Shown piece after piece: positions 7,521 through 21,938 of a stretch of 64,000 bases of DNA (position 1 is its first letter; each line of letters starts with the position of its first letter). The stretch is from the NCBI RefSeq assembly GCF_000190595.1, contig NC_015167.1:1291501-1355500 (forward strand), read 5' to 3'. The stretch comes from Cellulophaga lytica DSM 7489 (GTDB lineage Bacteria > Bacteroidota > Bacteroidia > Flavobacteriales > Flavobacteriaceae). Position numbers and translations under genes: made by a program. The notes under the pieces are model-generated. The model made no database searches. It was given only the letters and a program-made list of their open reading frames with translations, and was not told the DNA's origin.

Positions 7521-7534
7521 TTTTTTTGATTGAT
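7521..7534 (-). promoter_or_regulatory. Shared leader motif ATCAATCAAAAAAA
   Basis: Read leftward, this sequence sits about 23 bases before the ATG at 7498, one base after the transcription start predicted from the -24 element. Near-identical copies precede other genes of the island at 10866-10878, 13335-13347 and 15930-15942, with expanded or altered forms at 18320-18338 and about 19073-19087. Confidence 0.5.
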
Positions 7535-7545
7535 ACAATATTGTT

Positions 7546-7562
7546 TTCTAATTCTGTGCCAA
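7546..7562 (-). promoter_or_regulatory. Sigma-54-like promoter, weak -12
   Basis: Read leftward: TTGGCACAGAATTAGAA. The -24 half (TTGGCAC) matches the sigma-54 consensus exactly; at the -12 half only the G is conserved (GA instead of GC). The predicted start is near 7535, giving a leader of about 37 bases to the permease ATG at 7498. The -24 half and the distance to the upstream paired sites are shared with the promoters at 13359 and 21821. Confidence 0.5.
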
Positions 7563-7625
7563 AAAAGACAACAATCTAATTATCAGTTATTTATATTGAT
7601 AGAATAAAATTAACTAAAATTAAAG

Positions 7626-7664
7626 TGTAAAAATATTTTACATAACCTGTCCATTATTTGTACG
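7626..7664. promoter_or_regulatory. Paired activator sites (proposed UAS)
   Basis: Two 17-bp sites: TGTAAAAATATTTTACA (7626-7642, a perfect palindrome with arms TGTAAAA/TTTTACA) and TGTCCATTATTTGTACG (7648-7664, weaker palindrome). Centres are 22 bp apart; the nearer one is 99 bp upstream of the predicted start at 7535. The same pair with the same spacing occurs at 13438-13476 and 21900-21938. They are proposed binding sites for the NtrC-family regulator at 22010. Confidence 0.6.
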
Positions 7665-7675
7665 TTAAAAAAGAA

Positions 7676-10090
7676 CTAATCTGCTCTTAAACTCTTTAAC
7701 GGCTTTAATAAAGCAGCGCCTATTGCTTGATAACTTATGGTTACTACTGCAACTGATAAAGCAATACAGCCAGCACCTACAAAAATTCCCCAACTTAAAT
7801 TTATTTTATAAGCAAAATCTTGCAGCCAGTTACTCATTAAATACCAGCCTATTGGTGTAGCTATTAGCATAGCTATAAAAATAAGCTTTAAAAAATCTAG
7901 TGTAATTAATTTATAAATGCTTTTAAAAGGAGCGCCTAGAACCAATCTTATACTTATTTCCTTTTGGCGTTGCTCTACCATAAAAGCAGACAAGGCAAAT
8001 AGCCCTAAACAAGCAACCATAATGGCAAATAAGGCAAAGCTGTTAAAAATTTTACCCATACGTTTAACATCTTGGTGCATTTGAGCAAATTTCTGATCTA
8101 GAAAAGTATAATTAAAAGCTTGGTTGGGCACATTTTTATCCCAAACTGCACCAATTTCGGTTAAAGCTTCATTAACGGTAGTGCCACTTAATTTTAAAGA
8201 AATTATACCTGTATCTTTACCAATAACAAGTGCTAAAGGTGTAATATCTTCTTTTAATGATTTAAAATGAAAATCTGAAACGACACCAACAATCGTCCAA
8301 TTTTCACCATTAGAAATTTGCTTCCCTATTGGGTTTTTATACCCAAGTTCAGTTGCCATTTTTTCATTAATAATAATAGAATTTATAGCATCTGAGGCAT
8401 AGTCTTCAGAAAAATCTCTACCATTATTTACTTCCATACCTAGAGTTGAAATGTAATCATAATCTACACGCCATATTTGTGCCGCAATTCCTTTTTCTTC
8501 ATTACCTGCTGTAGATTTTCTAAATGTATTTCCATTTCTTTTTGTTCCTTCAATAGGCAAATAACTACTAACAGTAGCCTTTTTTACAGAAGGTAGCTGT
8601 ACCAATTGATTTTTAAAGCTCTCTGTTTTATTTCCTAATATTGATGCTCCTTCTAAAACAACTATTTGCTCTTTATTATACCCTAATTCTTTAGTGAGTA
8701 TAAAGTTCATTTGTTTGTAAATAATTAGCGTACCTATTATTAGTACTACAGATGTTGCAAACTGAAAAATAACCAACCCACTACGTAATCTACCGCTTTT
8801 ACTACCTATACTTAGGTTGCCTTTTAATACTGCTATTGGTCTAAAACCAGACAAATAAAATGCAGGATAAAGTCCTGCCAATAAACCTACTATAACCGCA
8901 AACAAAACTATTATTGGTATAAACCAAATAGATTGCCAAGGCATACTTACATTTTTTAATGCTATAGCATTAAAAGAAGGTAATAATACCCAGGCCAAAA
9001 GCACTCCTAACGCAAATGAAATAACACTAAATAAAACAGACTCTGTTAAAAATTGAGAAACCAAGTTACTTTTATAAGCCCCTATAGTTTTGCGTAGTCC
9101 AACTTCTTTAGCTCTGTTAGCAGATTTTGCTGTAGATAAATTTATAAAGTTAATACAAGCTAATATTAAAATAAAGCCAGAAATAGCCCCAAAAAGCCAT
9201 ACAAATCTAATATCTCCGTGTTGCAAACCGTCTCCCATTTTTAGGTCGGACTTTAAATATATATCCTCTACAGGCTGTAGTTTATATTTTATAGTTTTTA
9301 GTACTTCTAAAAAATCTGGTGCTCTTCCTCTTTCTTTTTGTGCTGGTATTACATAGTTTTCCATTATAGAAAACATCTTCTTTTCTAGTTCTTTTATATT
9401 TGTTTTTTTATCTACCAAGATATATGTAAAATAGTTCTGGTTTGTCCAGTTCATATTTGTATCTTCAATAGGTAGTAAAAAATCAAATTTTAAGTGGGTG
9501 TTTGGGGGTCTATTTGCCATTACAGCACTAATAGTATAGGGCTTAGACGTGTTATTGTCTAAAATAATATTTTTTCCTATTGGATCTCCATTAGGGAAAA
9601 AAATATCGGCTTTACTTTTTGAAATCACCAATTTTCCTGGAGCGCTTAATGCAGTACCACTATTGCCTTGTACTATATCAATTTCTAAAACATCTATTAA
9701 ATCTTGATTTGCAAATATAAAACCGTCTTCTAACTTATTTTGAGATTCACCGGCAATTTTAAGGCCTCTTTTTCCTGCTCCAAAAAGCTCACTCGCATTT
9801 ACTTTTGCTGCCTTTTTAATTTCTGGAAAATCTGATACTAAAGCATCTGCAAATGGCAATTGAAAATGAACACTTTTCATTACCTCACCGTTAAATTTTC
9901 CTTCCAGAACAACTCTGTATATTACATCTTTGTTTTTATAGTGTTGATCATATCCTAACTCATCTTTAATAAAAAGAGTTATTAACAAGCAAGCTGCAAT
10001 ACCAACAGCAAAACCTCCAACTTTAATTGCAGTAAAAAGTTTTTCATTTTTAAGACTTCTCCAGGCTATTTTAATATGGTTTTTAAACAT
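7676..10090 (-). CDS. Double-length ABC permease (FtsX/MacB type), copy 3
   Basis: The start is set at the ATG ending at 10090 (MFKNHIKIAWRSLKNEKLF, 804 residues), because this matches the conserved N-terminus of the sister permeases; a longer frame would overlap the upstream gene. Features: TM1 about 20-40, FtsX motif RAKEVGLRKTIGAYK after TM2 near residue 320, a second motif RQKEISIRLVLGAP near the C-terminal helices (RLVLGAP in place of the usual RKVLGAS), and final LKPLKSLRAD. It follows the GIN-domain gene by ten bases, so it belongs to the permease-GIN-permease unit. Its stop is 12 bases from the paired sites that are proposed to control the next unit. Confidence 0.9.
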   Translation of the reverse strand: MFKNHIKIAWRSLKNEKLFTAIKVGGFAVGIAACLLITLFIKDELGYDQHYKNKDVIYRVVLEGKFNGEVMKSVHFQLPFADALVSDFPEIKKAAKVNASELFGAGKRGLKIAGESQNKLEDGFIFANQDLIDVLEIDIVQGNSGTALSAPGKLVISKSKADIFFPNGDPIGKNIILDNNTSKPYTISAVMANRPPNTHLKFDFLLPIEDTNMNWTNQNYFTYILVDKKTNIKELEKKMFSIMENYVIPAQKERGRAPDFLEVLKTIKYKLQPVEDIYLKSDLKMGDGLQHGDIRFVWLFGAISGFILILACINFINLSTAKSANRAKEVGLRKTIGAYKSNLVSQFLTESVLFSVISFALGVLLAWVLLPSFNAIALKNVSMPWQSIWFIPIIVLFAVIVGLLAGLYPAFYLSGFRPIAVLKGNLSIGSKSGRLRSGLVIFQFATSVVLIIGTLIIYKQMNFILTKELGYNKEQIVVLEGASILGNKTESFKNQLVQLPSVKKATVSSYLPIEGTKRNGNTFRKSTAGNEEKGIAAQIWRVDYDYISTLGMEVNNGRDFSEDYASDAINSIIINEKMATELGYKNPIGKQISNGENWTIVGVVSDFHFKSLKEDITPLALVIGKDTGIISLKLSGTTVNEALTEIGAVWDKNVPNQAFNYTFLDQKFAQMHQDVKRMGKIFNSFALFAIMVACLGLFALSAFMVEQRQKEISIRLVLGAPFKSIYKLITLDFLKLIFIAMLIATPIGWYLMSNWLQDFAYKINLSWGIFVGAGCIALSVAVVTISYQAIGAALLKPLKSLRAD

Positions 10091-10100
10091 AACTTTAGTA

Positions 10101-10853
10101 TTACTGTATTTTCTGAATAGTTGCTTCGCCAATAATTAGACCTTTATTTAACTCTGGATTTCCTTGGTAAGCAACGGTTGCCTCACCATAAGCTGTAACT
10201 TTTAATTTTTTTGAAACCTGTACACGGTAACTACCCTCACCGTAAGCTGTAATTTTTGTGTTGTCATTTTTTATGCCTAAAGTGTTAATTTTAGTTTCTC
10301 CGTAAGCTGTAATTTTTAGGTTTTCTACACTACCTTTTTTAAGTTCTAAAAAACTTTCTCCGTATATAGTGGCGTGTAATTCTTTAAGGTCTGTATCATT
10401 TATAAACACTTGTGATTCACCATAAATTTTTAATCGTAATTTGTTTTGGGCAAACTGACTTTTACACACTATAGTTTCTTCTCCCCTTAAAGACAATTCT
10501 TCTATTTTTTTATAGGTAACAATTGCCTTTACAACGGTGCCTTTGTAAATAGACTTACGTTGTTTGTATCCGTTTTTTGTTACCTTTTCGCTTTTTGTAA
10601 ACTCTTTTGCCCCTTCTAAATACAAGCGCAAAGTTTTTCCAGAAACCTCAACATTTATTTTGTTTTCTGCTACCGTGCTACTTTCTATTATTACACTTTC
10701 TGTTTCTCCTTCTATAAAAGTTACTTGCACATGCGGACTAACAATTACTTTGTTAAACGATGCTACTTTTTTTTCACTTACTTGTGCCCTAACACTCATA
10801 GTCATTACTACTAAAAAAAGTGCTGTTACTATTTTAATTTGATTGATTTTCAT
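10101..10853 (-). CDS. GIN-domain (DUF2807) secreted protein
   Basis: A 250-residue protein with an N-terminal signal peptide (hydrophobic stretch from about residue 9, cleavage probably after VRA near residue 23). The remainder resembles the head GIN domain, a putative auto-transporter-like beta-helix domain common in Bacteroidetes. Evenly spaced rungs are visible in the C-terminal half: IYGESQ, IYGESF, AYGETK, AYGEGS and AYGEAT, about 18-20 residues apart, consistent with a parallel beta-helix. It is sandwiched between two permeases (30 bases after copy 4, ten before copy 3), so it should be co-expressed and may act in the periplasm or at the outer membrane with the exporter, or be a cargo. 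The partner is not known. Confidence 0.8.
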   Translation of the reverse strand: MKINQIKIVTALFLVVMTMSVRAQVSEKKVASFNKVIVSPHVQVTFIEGETESVIIESSTVAENKINVEVSGKTLRLYLEGAKEFTKSEKVTKNGYKQRKSIYKGTVVKAIVTYKKIEELSLRGEETIVCKSQFAQNKLRLKIYGESQVFINDTDLKELHATIYGESFLELKKGSVENLKITAYGETKINTLGIKNDNTKITAYGEGSYRVQVSKKLKVTAYGEATVAYQGNPELNKGLIIGEATIQKIQ

Positions 10854-10865
10854 AGATTCTATTTA

Positions 10866-10878
10866 TTTTTTGATTGAT
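10866..10878 (-). promoter_or_regulatory. Shared leader motif ATCAATCAAAAAA
   Basis: It lies between the stop of permease copy 4 (10883) and the ATG of the GIN gene (10853), 12 bases before that ATG. No -24 element accompanies it here, so the motif is not tied only to promoters; a role in translation or RNA stability is possible. Confidence 0.45.
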
Positions 10879-10882
10879 GATT

Positions 10883-13312
10883 TTATTCTGTTCGTAAGCT
10901 TTTTACTGGGTTAGATATTGCTGCTTTTATACTTTGATAGCTTACTGTTACAATAGAAATTATAAGCACCAACACTGCAATTAAAATAAAAGACCATCCG
11001 TTAATTTCTATTCGGTATGAAAAATCTTCTAACCACTTTGTCATAACAAACCAAGCCAATGGTATAGCAATTACTATAGATATTGCTACTAGTTTTAAAA
11101 AGTCTAATGTTAATTTGTATACAATGTTACTTATACTTGCTCCTAGCACTTTGCGTACTCCTATTTCTTTAATTCGCTTTTCTGCGTTAAATGTTGCTAA
11201 ACCAAATAACCCCAAACAAGCTATTAAAATTGATAAAATGGTAAAAGCAATAAATATTTTACCTAAACGCTCTTCTGCTTTATAAACATCATTAAAAGAA
11301 TCGTCTAAAAAATAATAATTAAATGGTTGTTCTGAGGCTACATTTGCCCACAAACCAGCCATACTTGCTATAGATTTAGCAAAATCTCCTTGACTTAGCT
11401 TTACTACTAATTTGCTACTTACTCTACGACTTAGCCTAAAGCTTACAGGGTCTATTGTATTACGTAATGTAGAGATATGAAAATCTTTAACCACGCCAAT
11501 AACTTTATATTCTATATTATCAGAATCATCTACCAATGCCATTCCAATAGCATCCGTTGGGTTAATTCCCAATCTGTTTAATGTTGTTTCATTTACTATA
11601 ATAGCAGTAGAGTCTGTTTTGTACTTAGGGTCAAAGTTTCTTCCTGCTAATAAATTTATATTTAGTGTAGAAATATAATCTTCATCTACATCCCATTTTT
11701 GCATTTGTACTACAGCATCTTCAACAGCTCTTCCTTTTACCGTAAAAGATTGGTCTGTTCTGTTAGATGGCGTTGGTAAAAAACTTGTTAACGACACACT
11801 TTTTACACTTGCTAGTTTCTCTATTTCTTGCTTAAAAGATGTTACTTGCTCACCAGCAGCATATACATCATCTAAAACCAAAACCTGTTCTTTGGTGTAA
11901 CCAATATCTTTCCCTTTTATATATTGTAATTGTTGAAAAACCACTAATGTACTACCCATTAAAAACACAGAGATTGCAAATTGAAAAACGACTAATCCGT
12001 TTCTTATTTTTCCGCCAGTACCTGTTGTTTTACCTCCTCCTTTTAATACCGTTACTGGTTTAAATTTTGACATAAAAAATGCTGGATAACTACCAGAAAG
12101 TAATCCTAAAAACAGTGTGAAAACCAAAAGTGAAATCCAAAAAAAGGGATTTAAAAACGGAATTTCTATACTTTTATTTGCTAACTCATTAAAATATGGC
12201 AATGCTAAAAAAGTAACCAAGACAGCAAAAATTAATGCTATAAAAGCCACCAAACCAGACTCTATTAAAAATTGCTTTATTAAATGGTATTTAGAAGAAC
12301 CTAATGTTTTACGAACACCAACTTCTTTAGCTCTTTTAAGAGATTGAGCTGTAGAAAGATTCATAAAATTTACACTGGCCAAAACCACTAAAAACAAGCC
12401 TATAAATGATAAAATATAAATATTTTGTATGCTATTGTTTGGGTTTAATTCTGCTACACGGTCTGAGTGTAAGTGTATTTTACGTAATGGTATAGTGCTA
12501 AAAACATAAGAGTTACCCTCGCTTTTAAAGCGTTCTACCGTCATTGTAGGCGCAAATGTTTTTTGAGCATAGGGCACAACATAACTTGTAAAAACATTTT
12601 GCAACCTTTTATTAAAACTAGCTATGTTAGTATTAGGATTTAACTTTACAAAAGTGCTAAAGTTGTTGCTGCCCCAAGTAACTTCTTTTGCATTTGGGTT
12701 ACTAGCCATAGACATAAGCATACTATAATCTCTTAAAAACGAGTTTTTAGGAAAATCTTTTATAACTCCTGTTACCGTATATACCTCATCATTATCTAAA
12801 ACTATTTGTTTACCTATTACTTGTTCTTCTGTAAAAAGTGTTTTTGCTGTAGATTCACTAATTACAATAGTATTTGGCTCTTGCAATGCTGTTTCTGTAT
12901 TACCTTGTAATAAGCCTAGTCCAAACATTTTAAAAAAGGAAGGATCTGCAAAAGCATTGCCATTAACTTTTATATTTTTAGTAGAATTTGTTTGGCGCAC
13001 CAACATTCCGCCCCAACCTCTTAACCTTGTTGCCAGCTGTACTTCTGAGTATTCTTTTTCTAAAACTGATGCCATTGGTGGCGTTACAACAGCTAAATTA
13101 TTAGAAGATGTCCCAAATTTTATATCTGCATTTATTCTATGAATTAGCGCTTCATCTGCAAACATTTTATCATAACTAAGCTCATCATAAATATATAATG
13201 AAATTAGTAGCGCACCTCCAACACCTATAGCTAAGCCAAATACATTTAAAAATGTAAAAAACAGGTTATTTTTTAAATTACGCCATGCTATTTTTAATTG
13301 ATTTTTAAACAT
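10883..13312 (-). CDS. Double-length ABC permease (FtsX/MacB type), copy 4
   Basis: 809 residues with the shared N-terminus MFKNQLKIAWRNLK and C-terminus NPVKSLRTE. TM1 lies about 20-43, TM2-4 about 297-420 with the FtsX motif RAKEVGVRKTLGSSK, TM5 about 440-460, and TM6-8 in the last 130 residues with RIKEIGVRKVLGAS. Two periplasmic MacB-like cores fill the gaps. It heads the second leftward unit; the preceding gap (13313-13487) has the -24 element, leader motif and paired sites. The gene is distinct from but clearly paralogous to the neighbours; the array looks like a product of repeated duplication. Confidence 0.92.
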   Translation of the reverse strand: MFKNQLKIAWRNLKNNLFFTFLNVFGLAIGVGGALLISLYIYDELSYDKMFADEALIHRINADIKFGTSSNNLAVVTPPMASVLEKEYSEVQLATRLRGWGGMLVRQTNSTKNIKVNGNAFADPSFFKMFGLGLLQGNTETALQEPNTIVISESTAKTLFTEEQVIGKQIVLDNDEVYTVTGVIKDFPKNSFLRDYSMLMSMASNPNAKEVTWGSNNFSTFVKLNPNTNIASFNKRLQNVFTSYVVPYAQKTFAPTMTVERFKSEGNSYVFSTIPLRKIHLHSDRVAELNPNNSIQNIYILSFIGLFLVVLASVNFMNLSTAQSLKRAKEVGVRKTLGSSKYHLIKQFLIESGLVAFIALIFAVLVTFLALPYFNELANKSIEIPFLNPFFWISLLVFTLFLGLLSGSYPAFFMSKFKPVTVLKGGGKTTGTGGKIRNGLVVFQFAISVFLMGSTLVVFQQLQYIKGKDIGYTKEQVLVLDDVYAAGEQVTSFKQEIEKLASVKSVSLTSFLPTPSNRTDQSFTVKGRAVEDAVVQMQKWDVDEDYISTLNINLLAGRNFDPKYKTDSTAIIVNETTLNRLGINPTDAIGMALVDDSDNIEYKVIGVVKDFHISTLRNTIDPVSFRLSRRVSSKLVVKLSQGDFAKSIASMAGLWANVASEQPFNYYFLDDSFNDVYKAEERLGKIFIAFTILSILIACLGLFGLATFNAEKRIKEIGVRKVLGASISNIVYKLTLDFLKLVAISIVIAIPLAWFVMTKWLEDFSYRIEINGWSFILIAVLVLIISIVTVSYQSIKAAISNPVKSLRTE

Positions 13313-13334
13313 AATTTTTATTCTTTACTGTTCG

Positions 13335-13347
13335 TTTTTTGATTGAT
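13335..13347 (-). promoter_or_regulatory. Shared leader motif ATCAATCAAAAAA
   Basis: Located 23 bases before the ATG at 13312 and starting one base after the transcription start predicted from the -24 element at 13359-13375, exactly as in the copy at 7521-7534. Confidence 0.5.
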
Positions 13348-13358
13348 GCTTACTAATA

Positions 13359-13375
13359 CCCTAATTCTATGCCAA
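13359..13375 (-). promoter_or_regulatory. Sigma-54-like promoter, weak -12
   Basis: Read leftward: TTGGCATAGAATTAGGG. The -24 part TTGGCA is kept and the following AGAATTAG is identical to the promoter at 7546-7562; the -12 C is replaced by G. The predicted start is near 13348, 36 bases before the ATG of permease copy 4. Confidence 0.5.
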
Positions 13376-13437
13376 AATATCAAAATGCTAATATACAAGT
13401 ACTTACGTATTATTTTTAACTGAAAAATTGATACAAC

Positions 13438-13476
13438 TGTAAAAAAAATTTACACAGACTGTCCATATTTTGTACG
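13438..13476. promoter_or_regulatory. Paired activator sites (proposed UAS)
   Basis: TGTAAAAAAAATTTACA (13438-13454; palindromic arms TGTAAA/TTTACA) and TGTCCATATTTTGTACG (13460-13476). Centres are 22 bp apart, the nearer one 98 bp upstream of the predicted start at 13348. The second site differs by only two bases from that at 7648-7664. Confidence 0.6.
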
Positions 13477-13487
13477 TTAAAAAAGAA

Positions 13488-15920
13488 CTATTCCGTACGT
13501 AGGCTTTTAACTGGGTTTGCTATTGCAGACTTTATAGACTGAAAACCAACAGTTACAATTGTTATTAGCATTGCAAAACCACCTGCTAATAAAAACACCC
13601 ACCATTTAATTTCAATTTTATAGGTAAAATCTTGTAACCAATTTTGCATAAAATAGTATGCTATAGGAGATGCAATTACAAACGCAACCAATACTAGCTT
13701 TAAAAAATCTTTGGTTAATAACTGTACAACAGATTTTACACTGGCACCTAAAACTTTACGTATCCCAATTTCTTTCTTCTTTTGTTCTGCAACATAAGAC
13801 ACCAAACCAAATAACCCTAGACAACTAATTAAAATGGCCAATATGGTAAATGCTATAGATATTTTAGATAATTTTTGTTCTTCTGCGTATAACTTTTCGG
13901 TTTCTTTATCCACAAAAACATACTCAAATGGCGCATACGGATTCACTTTTTTCCAGTTGGCCTCTAAACCACTCAAAACACTTTTTAAATTGTTGGTTTC
14001 TAACTTAGCAACTATCCAATCTGGTTCTGTTTCACTATACATAAGCATAGGTGAAATTGCTTGTTTAAAATCTTCAAAATGAAAATTCTCTGTTACACCC
14101 ACAATTTCATAATTCTCTGTTTCACTACCATAACTGCTAACAATTGTAGCTGCTAAGGCGTTTTCTATATCAATATTAAAAGCATTTAGCGTTGCCATAT
14201 TTACCAATATACCTGTAGAGTCTGTTTCTCTAAGCTTACGACCTTTAATCATTTTGGTTCCAATGGTTTCTAAATAATTAGGAGTAATACCATTGTAAAA
14301 AACAGAGGTTAGGTTATTATCATCTTGACTAGGTAAACGCATTGCCAAATCGCCCATAATAGATCTAGATGGGTAATTATTACTCCCTGTAACAGAACTA
14401 ACACCAGATACTCCTTGTAGTTGTGATTTTATGGCACTAAAATTTTGTTGTAACTCTTGGGTACCTAAACGTATTGCTAGCAAATTGTCTTTGTTAAAGC
14501 CTAAATCTTTTTGCTTAGCAAATTTTAGTTGTTGTGACACTATTATAACACTTACTGTTAAAACTATTGATACTACAAACTGAAAAACAACCAAACCACG
14601 CCTTAACAAACCATTGCTAGATTGTAGTTCTGTTGCCCCTTTTAGCACTTTAGATGGCTTAAAAGAAGACAACACCAATGCAGGGTAAATACCTGCTATT
14701 AAACCTGTTAACAAACCCATAGATCCCAACAATAATAAAATTTTAAGGTTTAGTATGTGTTCTGGCTCTATGTTGCCACCTGTTAATACATTAGCTACCG
14801 GAAGCAACAATAAAACTATAGGTATACTAATAAATACTGCTAAAAATGCTATTAAAATAGACTCACTTAAAAATTGTTGTACCAATGAGCTTTTTTGTGC
14901 TCCAATGGCTTTTCTAACACCTATTTCTTTTGCTCTTTTACTAGCTCTGGCTGTACTTAAATTAATAAAGTTTACACAGGCAACTAGTTGTACTATAAAT
15001 GCTAAAAACAATAATGCATACAAGTATTCTATATTAGATACTTCTTCTATTTGCTTATCTATACCTTTAGAGTGCAAATGAATATCTGTAACAGATTGCA
15101 ATAGTAATTTTTTATCAAAACCCATATCAGCCAAATCAATTCCTCCACGATCTAGTAAAAACTTCGGTAACTTTTTTTCTAAACTGGTTTTGCTAACATT
15201 GGCTCCTAGTTTTATATAACTGTACGCAAAGTTTTGCGTTGCAAAATTGCTAATATTGTTAGTGTATTCACCAATGCCAGGCGAGTTCATACACAATATA
15301 TAATTAGGATTTAAGTGGGTTGGAGTGGTTGGTTCATTAAAAACTCCTGTTACAGTTGCGTTAAATTGGTTTTCACCTGCACCAATAACCAATGTTTTAT
15401 TAATAATTTGATTTTCATTTTTAAATAATTTTGAAGCTAGTTTTTTAGATAAAACAATACTATTTGGTTTTTCTAAGGCTGTAGCCAAATTACCTTCTGC
15501 GGCTGTATAATTAAAAAATTTAAAAAAGGTAGAATCGGCTACATACCCCTTACTCTCATAATAACTTTGATTGTTTTTAGGGTTACGAATGAGAGCTTCT
15601 TCTCCTGAACCAAAATAAACAACTCTACAAGCATCTACCACCTCAGGAAAATCTTCTTTTAAAGCAAAAGCTATTGGAGGGCTACTTGTAGCTACATCTG
15701 CATTTATACTGTTGTTACTTATTGACTTTATTTTAGTACGTATTCTGTATACAGAAGCAACATCGTTATGGTGCGTATCATACCCAAATTGTGCGTTAAC
15801 ATAAGATATTATAATTAAGCAACATATTGTACCTACAGTAAGACTAAGAATATTTATACCTGTTTGTAACGGATTTTTTTTAAGACTACGCCACGCTATT
15901 TTTAATTGATTTTTAAACAT
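13488..15920 (-). CDS. Double-length ABC permease (FtsX/MacB type), copy 5
   Basis: 810 residues, N-terminus MFKNQLKIAWRSLKKNPLQ and C-terminus NPVKSLRTE. TM1 is about 22-44; FtsX motifs RAKEIGVRKAIGAQK and KKKEIGIRKVLGAS follow TM2 and TM6. Two periplasmic cores lie between the helices. It is the last gene of the unit that starts with tolC, 28 bases downstream of permease copy 6. The 14 bases after its stop are identical to those after permease copy 3, extending past the proposed regulator site, which points to duplication of a permease end together with the following promoter. Confidence 0.92.
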   Translation of the reverse strand: MFKNQLKIAWRSLKKNPLQTGINILSLTVGTICCLIIISYVNAQFGYDTHHNDVASVYRIRTKIKSISNNSINADVATSSPPIAFALKEDFPEVVDACRVVYFGSGEEALIRNPKNNQSYYESKGYVADSTFFKFFNYTAAEGNLATALEKPNSIVLSKKLASKLFKNENQIINKTLVIGAGENQFNATVTGVFNEPTTPTHLNPNYILCMNSPGIGEYTNNISNFATQNFAYSYIKLGANVSKTSLEKKLPKFLLDRGGIDLADMGFDKKLLLQSVTDIHLHSKGIDKQIEEVSNIEYLYALLFLAFIVQLVACVNFINLSTARASKRAKEIGVRKAIGAQKSSLVQQFLSESILIAFLAVFISIPIVLLLLPVANVLTGGNIEPEHILNLKILLLLGSMGLLTGLIAGIYPALVLSSFKPSKVLKGATELQSSNGLLRRGLVVFQFVVSIVLTVSVIIVSQQLKFAKQKDLGFNKDNLLAIRLGTQELQQNFSAIKSQLQGVSGVSSVTGSNNYPSRSIMGDLAMRLPSQDDNNLTSVFYNGITPNYLETIGTKMIKGRKLRETDSTGILVNMATLNAFNIDIENALAATIVSSYGSETENYEIVGVTENFHFEDFKQAISPMLMYSETEPDWIVAKLETNNLKSVLSGLEANWKKVNPYAPFEYVFVDKETEKLYAEEQKLSKISIAFTILAILISCLGLFGLVSYVAEQKKKEIGIRKVLGASVKSVVQLLTKDFLKLVLVAFVIASPIAYYFMQNWLQDFTYKIEIKWWVFLLAGGFAMLITIVTVGFQSIKSAIANPVKSLRTE

Positions 15921-15929
15921 AACTACTTG

Positions 15930-15942
15930 TTTTTTGATTGAT
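15930..15942 (-). promoter_or_regulatory. Shared leader motif ATCAATCAAAAAA
   Basis: It lies inside the 28-base gap between permease copy 6 (stop at 15949) and copy 5 (ATG at 15920), about nine bases before the ATG. No room for an independent sigma-54 promoter is present. Confidence 0.45.
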
Positions 15943-15948
15943 GATGTG

Positions 15949-18306
15949 TTACTCTGTACGCAAGCTTTTTACAGGGTTATTTACAGCTGCTTTTATTGCC
16001 TGAAAACTTACAGTTAACATAGCAATTGTAATGGCTCCTAAGCCTGCCAAAGCAAACATCCACCATTGTATGTTTATGCGGTAAGCATAACTTTGTAACC
16101 AGCTAGACATTGCCCACCAAGCCAGCGGTATGGCTATAGCAATAGACAAAATAACTAGTCTTATAAAATCTTTAGAAAGTAGGTTTACTATATTAGCTAC
16201 GCTAGCACCTAAAACTTTACGTACTCCAATTTCTTTGCTTCTTTGTTCTGATGTGTATGCGGCTAAACCAAACAAGCCTAAACAAGAAATAAGTATTGCT
16301 AATATTGCAAATAGTTTAGATAATGTACCTACCAACATTTCGCTTTTAAACTTTTGGTTAAACGCATCGTCTACAAACTCATACTCAAACGGAAAAGCTG
16401 CATTGTTTTTTTGCATAACACTTGCCATTGCTGTTATTGCATTTTTAGTGTCTGCAGTTTTAGCAATACGCACATACATATATTGTGCCTCTGTAGGTGC
16501 ATTAAGAAAAATTACAGGATCGCTTTTACCGTACATATCACCATATAAAAAGTCTTTAACTACACCAACAACATTATACCTATCCTCTCCAAAATAAATG
16601 CTTTTACCAACTGCAGAAACAGGATCTATTAGTTTTGCAAATGACTCTGTAATTATAAAATTTACACTGTCTAATTCTGGTTTTGGCTTAAAGTTTCTGC
16701 CATCAATAATCTCCATACCTGCAGTAGAAAGAAAATCTGAATTTATATACCTAAATGATATAAGCATTTCATTATTTTCATCTGCCATACCAGACCAAGT
16801 TGCTCCAGATCCATTATTACCTATAGACAGTGTGTTGTAACTGTTTAAACCCACATTATCTATTAAACCTGTAGCAAGCATCTCTTGTTTTATAGCGGTA
16901 TAATTTTTAACCATATCACCCCTTACATTCATTGTTATAAGGTTAGATTTGTTATACCCTAACTGTCTGTTTTTTACGTGCTGTACTTGCTTGTACACCA
17001 CTATAGTGCATATTATTAGTACTATTGAAGCTGCAAACTGGGTTACAACCAATCCTTTTCTAATAAAAACAGAACCTTTTTGGTTGCTACTAATACCTTT
17101 TAAAACTGTTACAGGTAAAAATGAAGACAAATAAAATGCTGGGTAGCAGCCTGCAAAAACACCACAAAAAATAGTTATACCAAGTAAAACTAACCAGTGT
17201 ATAGGATTAGTTAACCCCATTCCCAATTGTTTTTCTATAATGATATTAAATTGTGGCAATACTAAAAACACTAACAATATGCTTACCAACGTTGCTATAC
17301 TTGCAATAACTAAAGATTCTGTTATAAATTGAAAAATTAAGCGTTTACGACCAGCGCCTAAAACTTTACGCACACCAACCTCATTAGCTCTTTTAGCGCT
17401 ACGTGCTGTAGAAAGGTTCATAAAATTAATGCAGGCAATTATTAAAATAATCCAAGCAATTACAGAGAATAAATTTACATACACTATTCTACCACCAACC
17501 TGTACTCCGCCTTCAAAATTATCTCGTAAACGCCAGTCTAGCATACTATGCATAAAAGCATAGGTATCACTATCCTCTACTTTAGTTTGCAAAAACTTTT
17601 TTACAGTAGTATTTACTACTGCTGCATCTACTTTTTTATCTAATTGTATATAGGTATCTACTGAGTTATTTTCCCACTCTTGCAAATACTCTTTATCTTT
17701 TGCATACGGCTCAAAAGGTGCAAGCCAATTAAATTTTACGGTAACATTTTCCGGAAAATCTGCTACTACACCTGTTACCGTATACGTTGTTGTTTGGTCT
17801 ACTTTTAAAATTCTGCCTATAGCATTATTGCCTTCTCCAAAAAATTGTGATGCAGTTTCATTGGTAAGTATTATGGCATTTGTACGGCCAAATGCTGTTT
17901 GCGCATTACCTTGTATAAAACTTAAACTAAATATGTTTATAAAGTCGTTATCTGCGTAATATCCTTTTTTGTAAAACGATTTTTCATCTATGGTAAAAAG
18001 ATGCTCTTCATCTCTAACTCTTGTTGCATTTACTATGCCTGGCACTTCTTTTTTTAAAGCTTCTGCCATAGGTCCTGGAGTAGATGTAAACGTACGCCAC
18101 TCACCATTATATTGCTGGTTTGTTGGCAAATAGTACACCTGTTCTTTATTAGGGAAAATTGCATCGTAGTTTACCTCATCTTCTACCCATAAAAAAATAA
18201 GACTAGCACAGGTTATGCCCATTGCTAACCCAAATATGTTGAGAAAACTATAGCCTTTATTTTTTAATAAGCTCCTAAATGCAATTTTAAAATAATTTTT
18301 GAACAT
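15949..18306 (-). CDS. Double-length ABC permease (FtsX/MacB type), copy 6
   Basis: 785 residues, the shortest of the six, starting MFKNYFKIAFRSLLKNKGYS and ending NPVKSLRTE. TM1 is about 20-42, TM2 follows at about 280-300 with RANEVGVRKVLGAGRK, and the C-terminal helices carry RSKEIGVRKVLGAS. It sits 60 bases after the ATPase gene (18367-19068). With the ATPase, adaptor and TolC it forms the most complete part of the island, a MacAB-TolC-like set, although MacB normally has a fused ATPase and only four helices. The start is supported by the sister permeases. Confidence 0.92.
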   Translation of the reverse strand: MFKNYFKIAFRSLLKNKGYSFLNIFGLAMGITCASLIFLWVEDEVNYDAIFPNKEQVYYLPTNQQYNGEWRTFTSTPGPMAEALKKEVPGIVNATRVRDEEHLFTIDEKSFYKKGYYADNDFINIFSLSFIQGNAQTAFGRTNAIILTNETASQFFGEGNNAIGRILKVDQTTTYTVTGVVADFPENVTVKFNWLAPFEPYAKDKEYLQEWENNSVDTYIQLDKKVDAAVVNTTVKKFLQTKVEDSDTYAFMHSMLDWRLRDNFEGGVQVGGRIVYVNLFSVIAWIILIIACINFMNLSTARSAKRANEVGVRKVLGAGRKRLIFQFITESLVIASIATLVSILLVFLVLPQFNIIIEKQLGMGLTNPIHWLVLLGITIFCGVFAGCYPAFYLSSFLPVTVLKGISSNQKGSVFIRKGLVVTQFAASIVLIICTIVVYKQVQHVKNRQLGYNKSNLITMNVRGDMVKNYTAIKQEMLATGLIDNVGLNSYNTLSIGNNGSGATWSGMADENNEMLISFRYINSDFLSTAGMEIIDGRNFKPKPELDSVNFIITESFAKLIDPVSAVGKSIYFGEDRYNVVGVVKDFLYGDMYGKSDPVIFLNAPTEAQYMYVRIAKTADTKNAITAMASVMQKNNAAFPFEYEFVDDAFNQKFKSEMLVGTLSKLFAILAILISCLGLFGLAAYTSEQRSKEIGVRKVLGASVANIVNLLSKDFIRLVILSIAIAIPLAWWAMSSWLQSYAYRINIQWWMFALAGLGAITIAMLTVSFQAIKAAVNNPVKSLRTE

Positions 18307-18319
18307 GGTGATTGGCTAT

Positions 18320-18360
18320 TTTGATTGATTGATTGATAGATGATTTTGATTGATGATGAA
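18320..18360 (-). repeat. Expanded ATCA-type leader repeat
   Basis: Read leftward, the gap before permease copy 6 contains repeated ATCA units, two blocks (18344-18360 and 18320-18338), each a version of the ATCAATCAAAA leader motif; the second has four ATCA units in a row. It is non-coding, about 15-50 bases before the ATG at 18306. Confidence 0.5.
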
Positions 18361-18366
18361 CTCTAC

Positions 18367-19068
18367 TTATTTTGATGCTACTGCCTCAAAAGGTTTGTTG
18401 TGACTTTCGGTTACTATTTGGCCGTCAAAAAGGTTTACTACCCTGTGTGCGTAATGCGAGTCTCTGTCTGAGTGTGTTACCATTACTATTGTTGTACCTT
18501 CTTGGTTTAACTCGGTTAACAGGTTCATTACCTCTATACCGTTTTTAGAGTCTAAGTTACCTGTTGGCTCATCTGCAAGTATTAGTTTTGGGTTTGTAAC
18601 TACTGCTCTGGCAATGGCTACACGTTGTTGCTGACCACCAGATAATTGCTGCGGAAAGTGTTTTTCTCTGTGTGCAATTTTCATACGCTCTAAAACTTCT
18701 GTTACTTTTTGCTTGCGTTCTGCTTTGTTCATTTTTAAATAGATAAGTGGTAATTCTACGTTTTCAAAAACAGTAAGCTCATCTATTAAATTAAAACTCT
18801 GAAAAACAAAACCTAAGTTGCCTTTACGCAAACCGGTACGTTGGTTTTCTTTTAAACCACCTACTTCATGACCTGCAAATTGGTAACTACCCTCTGATGG
18901 GTTGTCTAACATACCTATTATATTTAGTAAGGTAGATTTACCACAACCAGATGGCCCCATTATGGCAACAAACTCTCCTTGACCCACATTTAGGTTTACA
19001 CTATTTAGTGCTAAGGTTTCTACTTCTTCTGTTCTAAAACTTTTTTTAAGGTCTTTAATTTGTATCAT
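18367..19068 (-). CDS. ABC transporter ATPase, LolD/MacB type
   Basis: 233 residues starting MIQIKDLKKSFRTEEVETL; the frame is open 38 codons further upstream, but that part crosses the 82-bp non-coding repeat and lacks family resemblance, so the ATG at 19068 is preferred. Walker A GPSGCGKST, Q-loop FVFQ, signature LSGGQQQRVAIAR, Walker B LILADEP, D-loop NLDS and H-loop VTHS are all intact. This is probably the main energy source for the island's permeases, in contrast to the divergent ATPase at 1968-2630. It lies between the adaptor gene (19184) and permease copy 6. Confidence 0.94.
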   Translation of the reverse strand: MIQIKDLKKSFRTEEVETLALNSVNLNVGQGEFVAIMGPSGCGKSTLLNIIGMLDNPSEGSYQFAGHEVGGLKENQRTGLRKGNLGFVFQSFNLIDELTVFENVELPLIYLKMNKAERKQKVTEVLERMKIAHREKHFPQQLSGGQQQRVAIARAVVTNPKLILADEPTGNLDSKNGIEVMNLLTELNQEGTTIVMVTHSDRDSHYAHRVVNLFDGQIVTESHNKPFEAVASK

Positions 19069-19102
19069 TTTGTTGATTGATTTTTTTAATGTGATTATAT
19101 CT

Positions 19103-19184
19103 TGTGTTAGGGATTGTAGTGTAAATCCTTTTTTATTTTTCTTAAAAAAGATTGCAACGTAAAGCCCGCCCGTAGGGAACACCC
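19103..19184 (-). repeat. 82-bp dispersed repeat, copy A
   Basis: About 95 percent identical to 29108-29189. Orientation is given in the sense of the upstream gene: the element begins at the last base of the adaptor stop codon. As leftward RNA it can fold a ten-pair hairpin (AAUCUUUUUU with AAAAAAGGAUU, containing one G-U pair) and ends ACAAUCCCUAACACA. No coding potential is apparent. Confidence 0.85.
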
Positions 19185-20434
19185 TATTTTAAAACTATTT
19201 TTTCTGCTTCTCCAAAAGTGTCGTAATTAGAGGTAATTACTTTTTCACCAGCTTGCAGCCCTTCTAAAACTTCGTAATATTTAGAGTTTTGCTTGCCTAT
19301 TCTAATGTTACGTTTTAATGCCTCTGTACCGTTTGGGCTTACTACAAAAATCCACTGGCCTCCTGTGCTTTGAAAAAAGCTACCTTTAGATACTAAAAGT
19401 GCATCTGATGAGGCCCCTAATTGTAGTTTTACATTAAAACTTTGTCCGGCACGTATATTTTCTGGTTTTTCTGCCGTAAATACTAGATCTACTTTAAACT
19501 TACCGCCACGAACTTCTGGGTACACTTTGCGTAAACGCAGGTTGTATGTTTTACCGTTACGCTCAAAAGAGGCGTTTAAATCTCTTTTTACACGGTCTAT
19601 ATAGTGCTCATCTATTTCTGCTTCTATTTTATAGTCTGTTAGTACGTTTATTTGTCCTATACGCTGACCTTGGTTTATGCTTTGCCCAATTTCTGCATCT
19701 AAAAATCCTAATTGACCGTCTGCTGGCGCACGTACATTTAAATGGTCTAAACGCTCATAAACCATAGATAAGGTTTTTTGCATTCTGTTTAAATCTGTAT
19801 CTAAACCAGCTAATGATGTTCTCCTCATTTTATCATCTTGCTCTGTTTGTATTTTTACAATGTTATGCTGTTTTAAAGATAACTCGTAATTTTCTTTTGC
19901 GGTTAAAAAAGCTTCTTTAGAGATTAAACCGTCTTTGTAAAGCTCTTGGTTTTGCTCATAATTACGTTTTAAACGTGTTAGCTCGTAAGAGGCTGTTGCT
20001 AAAGATTTACGCCCTTCTACTTGCCTAGAGTCAAAGGTTAATTTGGTAGACCTTAAATCGTTTTGTTTTAGTGCTAGGTTACTTTCACTAGCTAAAATTT
20101 GTTCGTAAAGGTTACTATTTTCTAGTTTTAAAATAATATCTCCTTTTTTTACCATTGCACCTTCTTCTATCAGCTTTTCTGTAACTCTACCACCTTCATA
20201 AGCATCCATATAAATAGTTGCTATTGGTGCTGCACTACCGTTAATGGTTATGTAATCATCAAACTTACCTTGTGTAACTGCACTTATAGATAGTTTGTCT
20301 TTTTCTGTTCTAAACGTAGACACAGAACTGCTCCATATTATTTTATATGCTGCAAAAGCTACTACTAGCCCAATTGCAATGTATGCGTAGTGTTTTGGGC
20401 GTAATCCTTTTTTCTTTTCTAATTGAATATCCAT
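19184..20434 (-). CDS. HlyD/MacA-type periplasmic adaptor
   Basis: 416 residues. One N-terminal membrane helix (about 15-33, YAYIAIGLVVAFAAYKIIW) anchors it in the inner membrane; next come a lipoyl-like half domain (KGDIILKLENSNLYEQ), a long alpha-hairpin coiled coil (about 100-215, rich in Leu, Lys, Glu), the second lipoyl half (VRAPADGQLGFLDAEIGQSINQGQ) and beta-barrel/membrane-proximal domains to the end. Such membrane-fusion proteins bridge an inner-membrane transporter to TolC. It lies 14 bases after tolC and before the ATPase, so it belongs to a tripartite exporter. The substrate is unknown. Confidence 0.92.
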   Translation of the reverse strand: MDIQLEKKKGLRPKHYAYIAIGLVVAFAAYKIIWSSSVSTFRTEKDKLSISAVTQGKFDDYITINGSAAPIATIYMDAYEGGRVTEKLIEEGAMVKKGDIILKLENSNLYEQILASESNLALKQNDLRSTKLTFDSRQVEGRKSLATASYELTRLKRNYEQNQELYKDGLISKEAFLTAKENYELSLKQHNIVKIQTEQDDKMRRTSLAGLDTDLNRMQKTLSMVYERLDHLNVRAPADGQLGFLDAEIGQSINQGQRIGQINVLTDYKIEAEIDEHYIDRVKRDLNASFERNGKTYNLRLRKVYPEVRGGKFKVDLVFTAEKPENIRAGQSFNVKLQLGASSDALLVSKGSFFQSTGGQWIFVVSPNGTEALKRNIRIGKQNSKYYEVLEGLQAGEKVITSNYDTFGEAEKIVLK

Positions 20435-20448
20435 TTATGTTGTAATTG

Positions 20449-21795
20449 TTAGTTTATAGTAAATACGGGCAAACCGTTGTAAAAATCTAATGTACTCTGG
20501 TTTACTTTTAATCTTATTTGTACTTGTAAATTCTCGTTTTGTGCTGTAGTGTACAGTACTTTTGCTTGGTACAATTCCACTGCAGAAATCATTTCTTTTT
20601 CGTATTTTTTTTGAGCTATAGAAAAACTTAGTTCTTGTGCTTTTAACTTTTTTAAGCTTTGTAAATTTTCTACTTCTAAAGCATTTTTTTCTTGTACCAA
20701 TTGCTGTATTAATTTATACAGCTCTTGCTCCTGAATTTTTAAATTATTTTCTGCCTGTTGCAACGCTATTTTTTGTTGTTTAATTTCTGATCTACCAGAC
20801 CATTTGTTACTAATAGGAATATTCATAGACAAACCTATAGACCTAGATGCGTTGTCTCTTATTTGATTTTTAAATGATATTATTTCGTTAGTAATATCAT
20901 CTACATTAGTTTCATAATATCCTGTACCATAGCCTGCAAACAAAGATAATGATGGGTACAAACCTCCTTTTGCAATAGCTACTTGTTTTTGTGCGGCCTT
21001 TACCTTTAATTGCCCTGCTTTTATACTTGGCAAAAATGTTTGAGCCTTGCTGTAAACTGTATTGGTTTGCAATGTAGTATCTGCCACTTTTTTTAGGTCT
21101 AAAGCATCTGCTTTTAGGGTTATGGTAGACACGTTTTCTAAATTCATTTCTTGTATTAAATTTAGTTTAGCTGCTGCCAATTGGTTTTCTGCTTGGGTTA
21201 CTGCTAACTTATCTGTTAACAATACAGATTCTGCCTCATACATATCTGCCTGTGCAATTAAACCCAACTCTAATTGTTTTTTTACAAATGAATAATTTGT
21301 ATCTGATATACTTACTTGCTCCTTAGCAATTTTTAATGCGCCTTGAAAAAAACGAATATCATAAAAGGCAGACATTACCCTAAATGCCAACAAGTATTTT
21401 TGTTGTTGCGCATCTTCTTGCACTGCTTTATAAATATACTTTGTTGCTTTTATACTATTTATTCTCTGAAAACCTCTAAAAATATCTAAGGAAGAATTTA
21501 AATTGTAATTGTTAGAGAAAAAATCTGTGTCTATTATATTATTGTTATTTGGATCTACAGACCTACCATATCTAACATCATAACTTGCAGAACCATTTAT
21601 ACTTGGCAACAAATTACGTACAGCTTGCTTATGGGTTTCTTTACTTGATGCAACTGTATACTCCTGATTTTTTAATTCTAAATTATGCGTTATAGCATAG
21701 TTTATACACTCATCTAAAGACCAGCTTTGTTGTGCACTACTTGGCAAGCTTACCAAGAGTAACAAAAATAGAATATGTTTAATTTTTATGTTCAT
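20449..21795 (-). CDS. TolC-family outer-membrane efflux protein
   Basis: 448 residues with a signal peptide (IKHILFLLLLVSLPSSAQQ) and the duplicated outer-membrane efflux domain: long amphipathic helices rich in Ala, Gln, Lys, Leu (about 170-215 and 330-410) separated by strands such as SLSLFAGYGTGYY. The family forms trimeric channels with a periplasmic tunnel. It is the first gene of the leftward unit, facing the regulator gene across a 214-base gap. The best sigma-54 promoter of the window lies 26-42 bases upstream of its ATG. Confidence 0.93.
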   Translation of the reverse strand: MNIKIKHILFLLLLVSLPSSAQQSWSLDECINYAITHNLELKNQEYTVASSKETHKQAVRNLLPSINGSASYDVRYGRSVDPNNNNIIDTDFFSNNYNLNSSLDIFRGFQRINSIKATKYIYKAVQEDAQQQKYLLAFRVMSAFYDIRFFQGALKIAKEQVSISDTNYSFVKKQLELGLIAQADMYEAESVLLTDKLAVTQAENQLAAAKLNLIQEMNLENVSTITLKADALDLKKVADTTLQTNTVYSKAQTFLPSIKAGQLKVKAAQKQVAIAKGGLYPSLSLFAGYGTGYYETNVDDITNEIISFKNQIRDNASRSIGLSMNIPISNKWSGRSEIKQQKIALQQAENNLKIQEQELYKLIQQLVQEKNALEVENLQSLKKLKAQELSFSIAQKKYEKEMISAVELYQAKVLYTTAQNENLQVQIRLKVNQSTLDFYNGLPVFTIN

Positions 21796-21820
21796 AATTT
21801 TTATTGTGTGCCAAAACTAA

Positions 21821-21837
21821 AGCCATTGTTGTGCCAA
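21821..21837 (-). promoter_or_regulatory. Sigma-54 promoter of the tolC unit
   Basis: Read leftward: TTGGCACAACAATGGCT, matching 15 of 17 positions of YTGGCACGRNNNTTGCW, with GG and GC exactly ten bases apart. The predicted start near 21810 gives a short, A-rich leader of about 15 bases. It is the complete member of three related promoters in the island. Confidence 0.75.
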
Positions 21838-21899
21838 AAACATAATTTACTAATTATCAATTACTTACAATTAAACACCTGTTAAAACCAAAAAGCAAG

Positions 21900-21938
21900 T
21901 GTAAAATATATATACAAATAATGTCTAATTTTTTTACA
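21900..21938. promoter_or_regulatory. Paired activator sites (proposed UAS)
   Basis: TGTAAAATATATATACA (21900-21916) and TGTCTAATTTTTTTACA (21922-21938), centres 22 bp apart; the nearer centre is 98 bp from the predicted tolC start. Located in the gap shared with the divergent regulator gene, so binding could also affect the regulator's own promoter. Confidence 0.6.

What the first reader, a model, noticed from the sequence alone, without database searches (positions are those of the whole stretch)
7521..21938. Three tandem units of the export island share a -24 element and two activator sites at fixed distance
Seen: upstream of tolC, permease copy 4 and permease copy 2 there is a TTGGCA -24 element (complete sigma-54 site TTGGCACAACAATGGCT at tolC). 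In each case a 17-bp palindromic site of the form TGTAAAnnnnnTTTACA (one mismatch at tolC) is centred 98-99 bp upstream of the predicted start, and a second site TGTCyAnnnnnTkTACr follows with centres exactly 22 bp apart, two helical turns. Known: NtrC-family regulators bind paired upstream sites on one face of DNA and activate sigma-54 polymerase. Inference: the adjacent regulator (22010) controls all three units, giving a coordinated, undescribed regulon that switches on 6 permeases, 2 ATPases, adaptor, TolC and a GIN protein. Weak point: two promoters lack the -12 C.
Basis: partly seen in the sequence, partly recalled or inferred. Interest (0 to 1): 0.88.

Follow-up and report, generated by a model that had tools for sequence, protein, structure and literature searches.

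The report
Sigma-54 switch for swappable export permeases
In a marine Cellulophaga bacterium and many of its relatives, one two-component regulator appears to switch on a shared export pump and a changeable set of membrane permeases through an almost rigid promoter design, which suggests how orphan permeases could find a partner ATPase.

Summary
All three units (tolC, permeases 4 and 2) carry two 17-bp dyads with centres 22 bp apart, then GGCAY-N5-TNG 64-65 bp later; the 39-bp pattern (up to 3 mismatches) is nowhere else in the 3.77-Mb genome. Of 77 testable named loci with this regulator, 76 have the pair upstream of it and the promoter 63-65 bp beyond; 58 of 76 have an IHF-type site between at a fixed place. 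In 249 family genomes the pair occurs in 38 of 39 with the regulator and 6 of 210 without. Of 43 further copies examined, 37 precede an ~800-aa FtsX/MacB-type permease, in arrays or alone. Strict promoters, found at 31 of 43, lie 62-65 or 52-55 bp away, one helical turn apart, and nowhere else. The missing -12 C is normal here. Best reading: an NtrC-type regulator and sigma-54 drive a dedicated regulon of interchangeable permeases plus one TolC-adaptor-ATPase hub. Binding, transcription, signal and cargo are untested; a COG-level sigma-54/FtsX link is in print.

The parts
22010..23380 (+). Response regulator: REC + sigma-54 AAA+ (GAFTDA) + Fis-type HTH; proposed activator
   Evidence: Pfam PF00072, PF00158, PF25601, PF02954; orthologue alignment; recognition helix and GAFTDA in 80 loci
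23370..24719 (+). Sensor histidine kinase; two hydrophobic helices with a loop of only a few residues, PAS, HATPase; start at MASKSF
   Evidence: Pfam; hydropathy
21900..21938 (-). Paired 17-bp dyads (UAS) upstream of tolC, centres 21908 and 21930
   Evidence: conserved
21855..21867 (-). IHF-type site TAAGTAATTGATA
21823..21837 (-). -24/-12 element TTGGCACAACAATGG (tolC)
20449..21795 (-). TolC-type outer-membrane channel
   Evidence: PF02321
19184..20434 (-). MacA/DarC-like periplasmic adaptor
   Evidence: PF13437; TIGR01730 above cut-off, NF038010 below
18367..19068 (-). ABC ATPase 1 (MacB/LolD/DarD-like); ATG start at about 19068 preferred over the listed GTG
   Evidence: PF00005; NF038007 below cut-off
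15949..18306 (-). Permease 6, duplicated MacB_PCD + FtsX
13488..15920 (-). Permease 5; predicted model with two MacB-like halves and eight long helices
13438..13476 (-). Paired dyads upstream of permease 4
13393..13405 (-). Weak IHF-type site TAAGTACTTGTAT
13361..13375 (-). -24/-12 element TTGGCATAGAATTAG (permease 4)
10883..13312 (-). Permease 4
10101..10853 (-). GIN/DUF2807 protein
   Evidence: PF10988
7676..10090 (-). Permease 3 (ATG start MFKNHIK)
7626..7664 (-). Paired dyads upstream of permease 2
7581..7593 (-). IHF-type site TAAATAACTGATA
7548..7562 (-). -24/-12 element TTGGCACAGAATTAG (permease 2)
5111..7498 (-). Permease 2
2643..5087 (-). Permease 1
1968..2630 (-). ABC ATPase 2, far end of the array
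   Evidence: an ATPase 2 is also seen beyond the permeases in 7 of the 9 other genomes mapped, not in the stretches fetched from G018 and G028

Best explanation
The adjacent two-component pair controls the island as a sigma-54 regulon. Phosphorylated regulator dimers bind the two dyads side by side, two helical turns apart, and nucleate the AAA+ oligomer. An IHF/HU-type protein bends the DNA between. The oligomer contacts sigma-54 polymerase held at GGCAY-N5-TNG at a fixed rotational position and opens the promoter. In this genome three units fire together: tolC-adaptor-ATPase1-P6-P5, P4-GIN-P3, and P2-P1-ATPase2. Across the family the same promoter module also sits in front of lone permease genes with no ATPase nearby, so the regulon's output is one shared TolC-adaptor-ATPase hub plus a lineage-specific set of fused double FtsX permeases. 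Shown by sequence: sites, spacing, promoter elements, co-occurrence, target genes. Inferred: binding, phosphorylation, bending, sigma-54 dependence, shared ATPase, envelope-stress or peptide signal.
For: Pair at spacing 22 in 76 of 80 named loci (3 of the other 4 cut by contig ends), against 11 pairs in total at all other spacings 17-44 in the same upstream stretches; in the remaining 639 kb of the loci, 8 pairs at 22 and 1 at another spacing. GG-N8-T-N-G, searched without demanding CA, starts 63-65 bp after the pair in 76 of 76 and at no other offset in more than 8; all 76 also read GGCAY there (where GGCAY was the search term). IHF-type site starting at -32 or -33 in 58 of 76 tolC promoters. 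Pair in 38 of 39 genomes with the regulator versus 6 of 210 without; reversed pattern 11 matches in 249 genomes. 37 of 43 extra sites have an FtsX-type permease (733-835 aa) as the longest ORF starting within 600 bp, 0 of 6 in genomes without the regulator. Strict promoter only at 62-65 (24) or 52-55 (7) among 31 hits in 30-100 bp on both strands. Four more distant regulators keep the geometry with altered half-sites and recognition helix. RpoN and two HU/IHF-family genes are in the genome.
Against: No experiment. The regulator has G[AS]FTDA instead of GAFTGA in 80 of 80 loci, so contact with sigma-54 is assumed. C at -12 is not conserved. The tolC site is lost in one named genome (L120). 12 of 43 extra sites lack a strict promoter and 6 of 43 have no permease. 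An 8-of-9 IHF-type match occurs somewhere in 18% of shuffled 64-bp stretches, 15 of 76 tolC promoters have none, and in the 52-55-bp class only 6 of 14 have it at -31/-32 and 7 of 14 have none; P4's own match is weak. Three of seven distant loci showed no such pair, and the four that did were read with a loosened pattern and no control. Genomes compared are related, so counts are not independent events.
Confidence: 0.88

Rival explanations
1. The dyads are bound by an unrelated regulator (a different dimeric repressor or activator) and the adjacent response regulator acts elsewhere.
For: Binding was not measured; two 17-bp dyads are compatible with many dimeric regulators.
Against: Presence of the pair tracks this regulator gene (38 of 39 versus 6 of 210), the pair lies beside it, and the half-site differs in loci whose regulator has a different recognition helix. 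A sigma-54 promoter needs an AAA+ activator.
Confidence: 0.06
2. The promoters are read by the primary sigma factor (Bacteroidetes -7/-33 type, recalled); TTGGCA and the dyads form an ordinary activator or operator arrangement.
For: -12 C is not conserved; P2's TTGGCA is also part of a 9-of-12 sigma-70-like match, in a scan whose total (55) is at the shuffled expectation of 60.3. A -7/-33 scan was not run.
Against: GG-N8-T-N-G at a fixed distance in 76 of 76, helical phasing to the paired site, and an AAA+ sigma-54 activator as neighbour.
Confidence: 0.05
3. Only the tolC promoter is functional; the P4 and P2 sites are by-products of duplicating array segments.
For: P4 and P2 upstream regions share flanking stretches. 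The site in front of P2 goes with P3: a P3 gene followed by a pair site is in the window, G011 and G007, while in G015, G002 and G005 there is no P3 and P2 follows GIN directly without a site.
Against: The site in front of P4 keeps pair, distance and promoter in five Cellulophaga genomes while much of the DNA between has diverged, and other genera have internal and lone-gene copies in other contexts.
Confidence: 0.1

Closest known systems
NtrC-type bEBP / sigma-54 / IHF promoters (review PMC7057263, passages read)
   Same: REC-AAA+-Fis HTH activator, upstream sites, -24/-12 promoter, IHF-type bend between
   Different: GAFTDA motif; -12 reduced to TNG; almost fixed pair-promoter distance across genera; targets are FtsX-type permeases
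In-silico sigma-54 regulon survey, Carrera-Reyna et al. 2025 (PMC12316311; abstract, section 16 and passages read)
   Same: Reports sigma-54 promoters on COG0577 FtsX-type permeases, including Bacteroidia, as first evidence
   Different: In what I read: no regulator named for them, no upstream sites; the words Cellulophaga, Maribacter and 'upstream activating' do not occur. It uses class-specific matrices and says it has limited capacity for promoters far from TGGCACN5-7TTGCT
MacAB-TolC
   Same: TolC channel, MacA-like adaptor, MacB-like permease fold
   Different: ATPase and permease are separate genes; the permease is two fused halves; six permeases for two ATPases here
ADOP duplicated orphan permeases (TIGR03434)
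   Same: ~800-aa internally duplicated FtsX permease; full-length match 298 bits. Lack of an adjacent ATPase as a mark of the family is recalled
   Different: Below the family cut-off (622); many copies here are arrayed beside an ATPase
Darobactin exporter DarBCD
   Same: Best-scoring NCBIfam models for the ATPases and the adaptor are DarD and DarC
   Different: Dar models score below their equivalog cut-offs; no peptide precursor was looked for
Bce-type peptide sensing (BceAB-BceRS)
   Same: Kinase with two hydrophobic helices and a very short loop; permease fold match to BceAB
   Different: Regulator is a sigma-54 activator; permease model has eight long helices and two MacB-like domains

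Membership tests
sigma-54 promoter | GG at -25/-24 within TGGCAY | tested here: met
   76 of 76 tolC promoters and the three window units; GGCAY was the search term, GG with T and G alone
sigma-54 promoter | T and G of the -12 element at fixed spacing (T +10, G +12 from the first G) | tested here: met
   76 of 76, not part of the search term
sigma-54 promoter | C at -12 (GC dinucleotide) | tested here: not met
   11 of 76 tolC promoters; 2 of 47 internal/dispersed
sigma-54 promoter | rpoN present in the genome | tested here: met
   PF04552 hit; full-length match to solved RpoN
sigma-54 promoter | expression depends on rpoN | not testable with these tools
   needs a deletion
NtrC-type bEBP | REC + AAA+ + Fis HTH | tested here: met
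NtrC-type bEBP | GAFTGA loop | tested here: inconclusive
   G[AS]FTDA in 80 of 80 loci and FTDA in 8 of 9 more distant regulators
NtrC-type bEBP | paired upstream sites in helical phase | tested here: met
   spacing 22; distances 62-65 or 52-55
IHF-assisted sigma-54 promoter | IHF consensus between UAS and -24 | tested here: met
   fixed-position match in 58 of 76 tolC promoters; consensus recalled; which protein binds not tested
MacAB-TolC | MacB with fused N-terminal ATPase and one FtsX domain | tested here: not met
   separate ATPase genes; two MacB_PCD and two FtsX stretches in permease 6
ADOP (TIGR03434) | score above curated cut-off | tested here: not met
   permease 5: 297.7 versus 622.3 bits
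Darobactin exporter | score above DarB/C/D cut-offs | tested here: not met
   131.8/700, 201.8/450, 294.3/375 bits
Bce-type sensing module | kinase without extracytoplasmic domain | tested here: met
   hydropathy only, window kinase and 7 relatives printed
Bce-type sensing module | 10-TM BceB permease (recalled) | tested here: not met
   eight long helices in the predicted model

The most novel reading that the evidence does not exclude
A plug-in exporter: one ATPase-adaptor-TolC hub, switched on by an intramembrane-sensing kinase through sigma-54, serves an interchangeable pool of orphan double permeases (6 here, about 27 in tandem plus 10 dispersed with their own site in one relative), and permeases join the pool by carrying the same promoter cassette. 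This would explain how duplicated orphan permeases work without an ATPase gene of their own.
Probability: 0.4. Interest if true: 0.82.

Novelty: new variant of a known kind. Interest (0 to 1): 0.62.

Why it matters
It gives a nearly diagnostic cis-code (paired dyads, IHF-type bend, relaxed -12, constant distance) that names likely targets of an unnamed regulator in many flavobacterial genomes, suggests that sigma-54 searches demanding TTGC will miss such promoters, and makes the question of which ATPase powers orphan FtsX permeases directly testable.

Tried and rejected
Single-dyad and loose -24/-12 searches of the window are at or below chance and were not used as evidence. Distant regulators were first scored as lacking the site; reading them showed 16-bp dyads at similar spacing in 4 of 7. 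Terminator and sigma-70 scans gave numbers at the shuffled expectation. Ten literature searches were answered; only PMC12316311 came close to the topic. A name for G035 was not found; its regulator is closest to Maribacter-type loci. In one search only the 6 best candidates per genome were scored, so an orthologue could have been missed. The Fisher value (2.4e-37 for 38/1 versus 6/204) ignores relatedness and is not used; the first table printed there was mistyped (210 for 204). Dropped before the count of 43: three further listed sites, namely the window's own P4 and P2 sites and one in G007 (L038:7858-7896) that lies before the GIN gene, not before a permease; with them the count is 39 of 46.

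Full report
What is there. The window lies in a 3.77-Mb genome whose nearest named relatives are Cellulophaga. A response regulator (REC, sigma-54 AAA+, Fis HTH) and a histidine kinase are divergent from tolC, an adaptor, an ABC ATPase, six ~800-aa permeases, a GIN/DUF2807 protein and a second ATPase; permease 6 has two MacB_PCD and two FtsX stretches. The three upstream regions each contain two 17-bp dyads with centres 22 bp apart and a GGCAY-N5-TNG element 64, 64 and 65 bases further on. With up to 3 mismatches the 39-bp pattern occurs at these three places only in the whole genome, reversed control 0.

Conservation. In nine other genomes with an orthologous regulator (76-99% identity) the pair is upstream of tolC in nine of nine. 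Of the other four, three are cut by a contig end 38-72 bp before the regulator and one, L120, lacks it in 21 kb. All 76 have GGCAY 63 (13), 64 (59) or 65 (4) bases after the pair. GGCAY was the search term; T at +10 and G at +12 were not, and both are 76 of 76, whereas the canonical -12 C is A23 C11 G10 T32. Searching only GG-N8-T-N-G gives the same 13, 59 and 4, and 1 to 8 hits at six other offsets. The RpoN residue that aligns with E. coli R383 is kept in this genome (the role of R383 in reading the -12 element is recalled).

A third element. Between pair and promoter the DNA is little conserved except for TAAnnnnYTGATW-WTCAR starting at -32 and a T-rich run before GG (59 loci with distance 64: TAA 58, 58, 55; TG 59 and 56). 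TAAnnnnYTGATW is the reverse complement of the E. coli IHF consensus (recalled). An 8-of-9 match starts at -32 or -33 in 58 of 76 tolC promoters and is absent in 15; any position in a shuffled 64-mer gives one in 18%. Among internal and dispersed promoters it is at -32 or -33 in 28 of 33 of the 62-65-bp class but at -31 or -32 in only 6 of 14 of the 52-55-bp class. In the window tolC has a full match, P2 nearly full, P4 weak. Two HU/IHF-family genes exist. IHF often assists looping at sigma-54 promoters (PMC7057263, passages).

Link to the regulator. Among 60 relatives the pattern with at most 1 mismatch is in 10 of 10 genomes with the orthologue and 2 of 50 without; the reversed pattern gives 7 matches in all. 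In 249 family genomes, which overlap the first set, it is in 38 of 39 genomes with the regulator (E <= 1e-150) and 6 of 210 without; reversed control 11 matches in 11 genomes (overlap recounted). The single miss, G077, has only 72 bases of contig upstream of its regulator. Five of the six matches without regulator have a mismatch; the sixth, G265, has a promoter at 64 bp before an 834-aa protein unlike the permeases. More distant regulators (45-50% identity) have 16-bp dyads 21-22 bp apart and 64-66 bp from GGCAY in 4 of 7 loci inspected, with half-sites such as TGTTCG and a different recognition helix, for example TRAALYRRLEK against SRQTLYNKIKK; this was read with a loosened pattern and has no control.

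The wider regulon. Searches list 46 pair sites outside the regulator-tolC gap in regulator-bearing genomes of the family sample. Three are the window's own two and one in G007 before its GIN gene. The other 43 (13 in G035, 30 in other genomes) were fetched: in 37 the longest ORF starting within 600 bp is an FtsX-type permease of 733-835 aa, 99-347 bp after the pair. The other six are ATPase 2, a Zn-protease/GldB-like lipoprotein, a GIN/DUF2807 protein 402 bp away, a PF00144 serine hydrolase, and two without a clear gene. Of six sites in genomes without the regulator none has a permease. A strict [TCA]GGCAYN5TNG is found at 31 of 43, at 62-65 bp (24) or 52-55 bp (7) and at no other distance between 30 and 100 bp on either strand; the same DNA read backwards gives 2 in the full 140 bp. 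The two classes differ by one helical turn. Twelve sites have no strict promoter. In none of the 12 stretches around G035's dispersed sites (12-20 kb each) is a relative of the island's ABC ATPases found at E <= 1e-12, so those permeases would need an ATPase encoded elsewhere.

Array turnover. Regulator, kinase, TolC, adaptor and ATPase 1 are conserved while permeases are gained, lost and replaced among seven Cellulophaga genomes mapped. A P3 gene followed by a pair site is in the window, G011 and G007; in G015, G002 and G005 P3 is absent and P2 follows GIN directly, without a site. In G035 an array of 25 complete permease genes plus two cut by my piece ends (seen as MacB_PCD hits) spans 67 kb between ATPase 1 and ATPase 2, median pairwise identity 30%, with one pair site backed by a promoter, at tolC.

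Mechanism. Shown: sites, spacing, promoter elements, co-occurrence, target class. Inferred: the regulator binds the two dyads as neighbouring dimers, an IHF/HU protein bends the DNA, the AAA+ ring contacts sigma-54 polymerase on a fixed face, and tolC, P4 and P2 units fire together. Further inference: the kinase, with two hydrophobic helices and a loop of a few residues, reads its signal in the membrane, possibly from a permease as in Bce systems (recalled), and the permeases share the hub ATPase. A predicted model of P5 (mean pLDDT 82.5) has two MacB-like halves and eight long helices that I read as transmembrane; best fold matches include YbbAP, MacB, LolCDE, YtrEF and BceAB.

Relation to the known. 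The control logic is the textbook sigma-54 enhancer type. A survey of predicted sigma-54 promoters reports FtsX-like permeases (COG0577) as new sigma-54 targets (PMC12316311; abstract, section 16 and passages read), without regulator or upstream sites in what I read; the terms Cellulophaga, Maribacter and 'upstream activating' do not occur in its main text. The permeases resemble ADOP duplicated orphan permeases and the darobactin exporter but score below those families' cut-offs. A species description reports 28 and 33 ADOP-annotated copies in two Dyadobacter genomes (PMC11573002, one passage), so expansion as such has been seen in Bacteroidota.

Noticed in passing
L265-L267, L049, L040 (G035:C2:753439-825163): A 67-kb tandem array of about 27 different FtsX-type permeases on one strand, between ATPase 1-adaptor-TolC and ATPase 2.
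   Followed up: partly
window 21808-21812 (second GGCAC, minus strand) and the same place in named loci: A second GGCAY lies exactly 23 bp after the -24 GG, about where transcription should start, in 52 of 76 tolC promoters; role unknown.
   Followed up: partly
L263:2979-3017 (G265): A genome without the regulator orthologue has an exact paired site with GGCAC at 64 bp, in front of an 834-aa protein unlike the permeases; perhaps another regulator of the same type.
   Followed up: no
window 22010-23380: All 80 orthologues and 8 of 9 distant regulators have FTDA in place of FTGA in the sigma-54 contact loop.
   Followed up: partly
window 23370-24719: The kinase has two hydrophobic helices with a loop of only a few residues, like intramembrane-sensing kinases.
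   Followed up: partly
33 bases on the regulator side of the pair, named loci: AAMTAC at exactly 33 bases from the pair in 38 of 76 loci, not found in 35; toward the regulator gene it reads GTAGTTT, perhaps a promoter box.
   Followed up: no
L257:3028-3066 (G256): A paired site in front of a 420-aa PF00144 (serine beta-lactamase family) lipoprotein-like gene instead of a permease.
   Followed up: partly
L165:5760 and L165:14262 (G035): Two paired sites near a Zn-protease/GldB-like lipoprotein and a second GIN/DUF2807 protein; the GIN link recalls the GIN gene inside the island.
   Followed up: partly
G000:C1:1289469-1290794, just before the window: A second response regulator of the same class (39% identity) lies 0.7 kb before the window start.
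   Followed up: no
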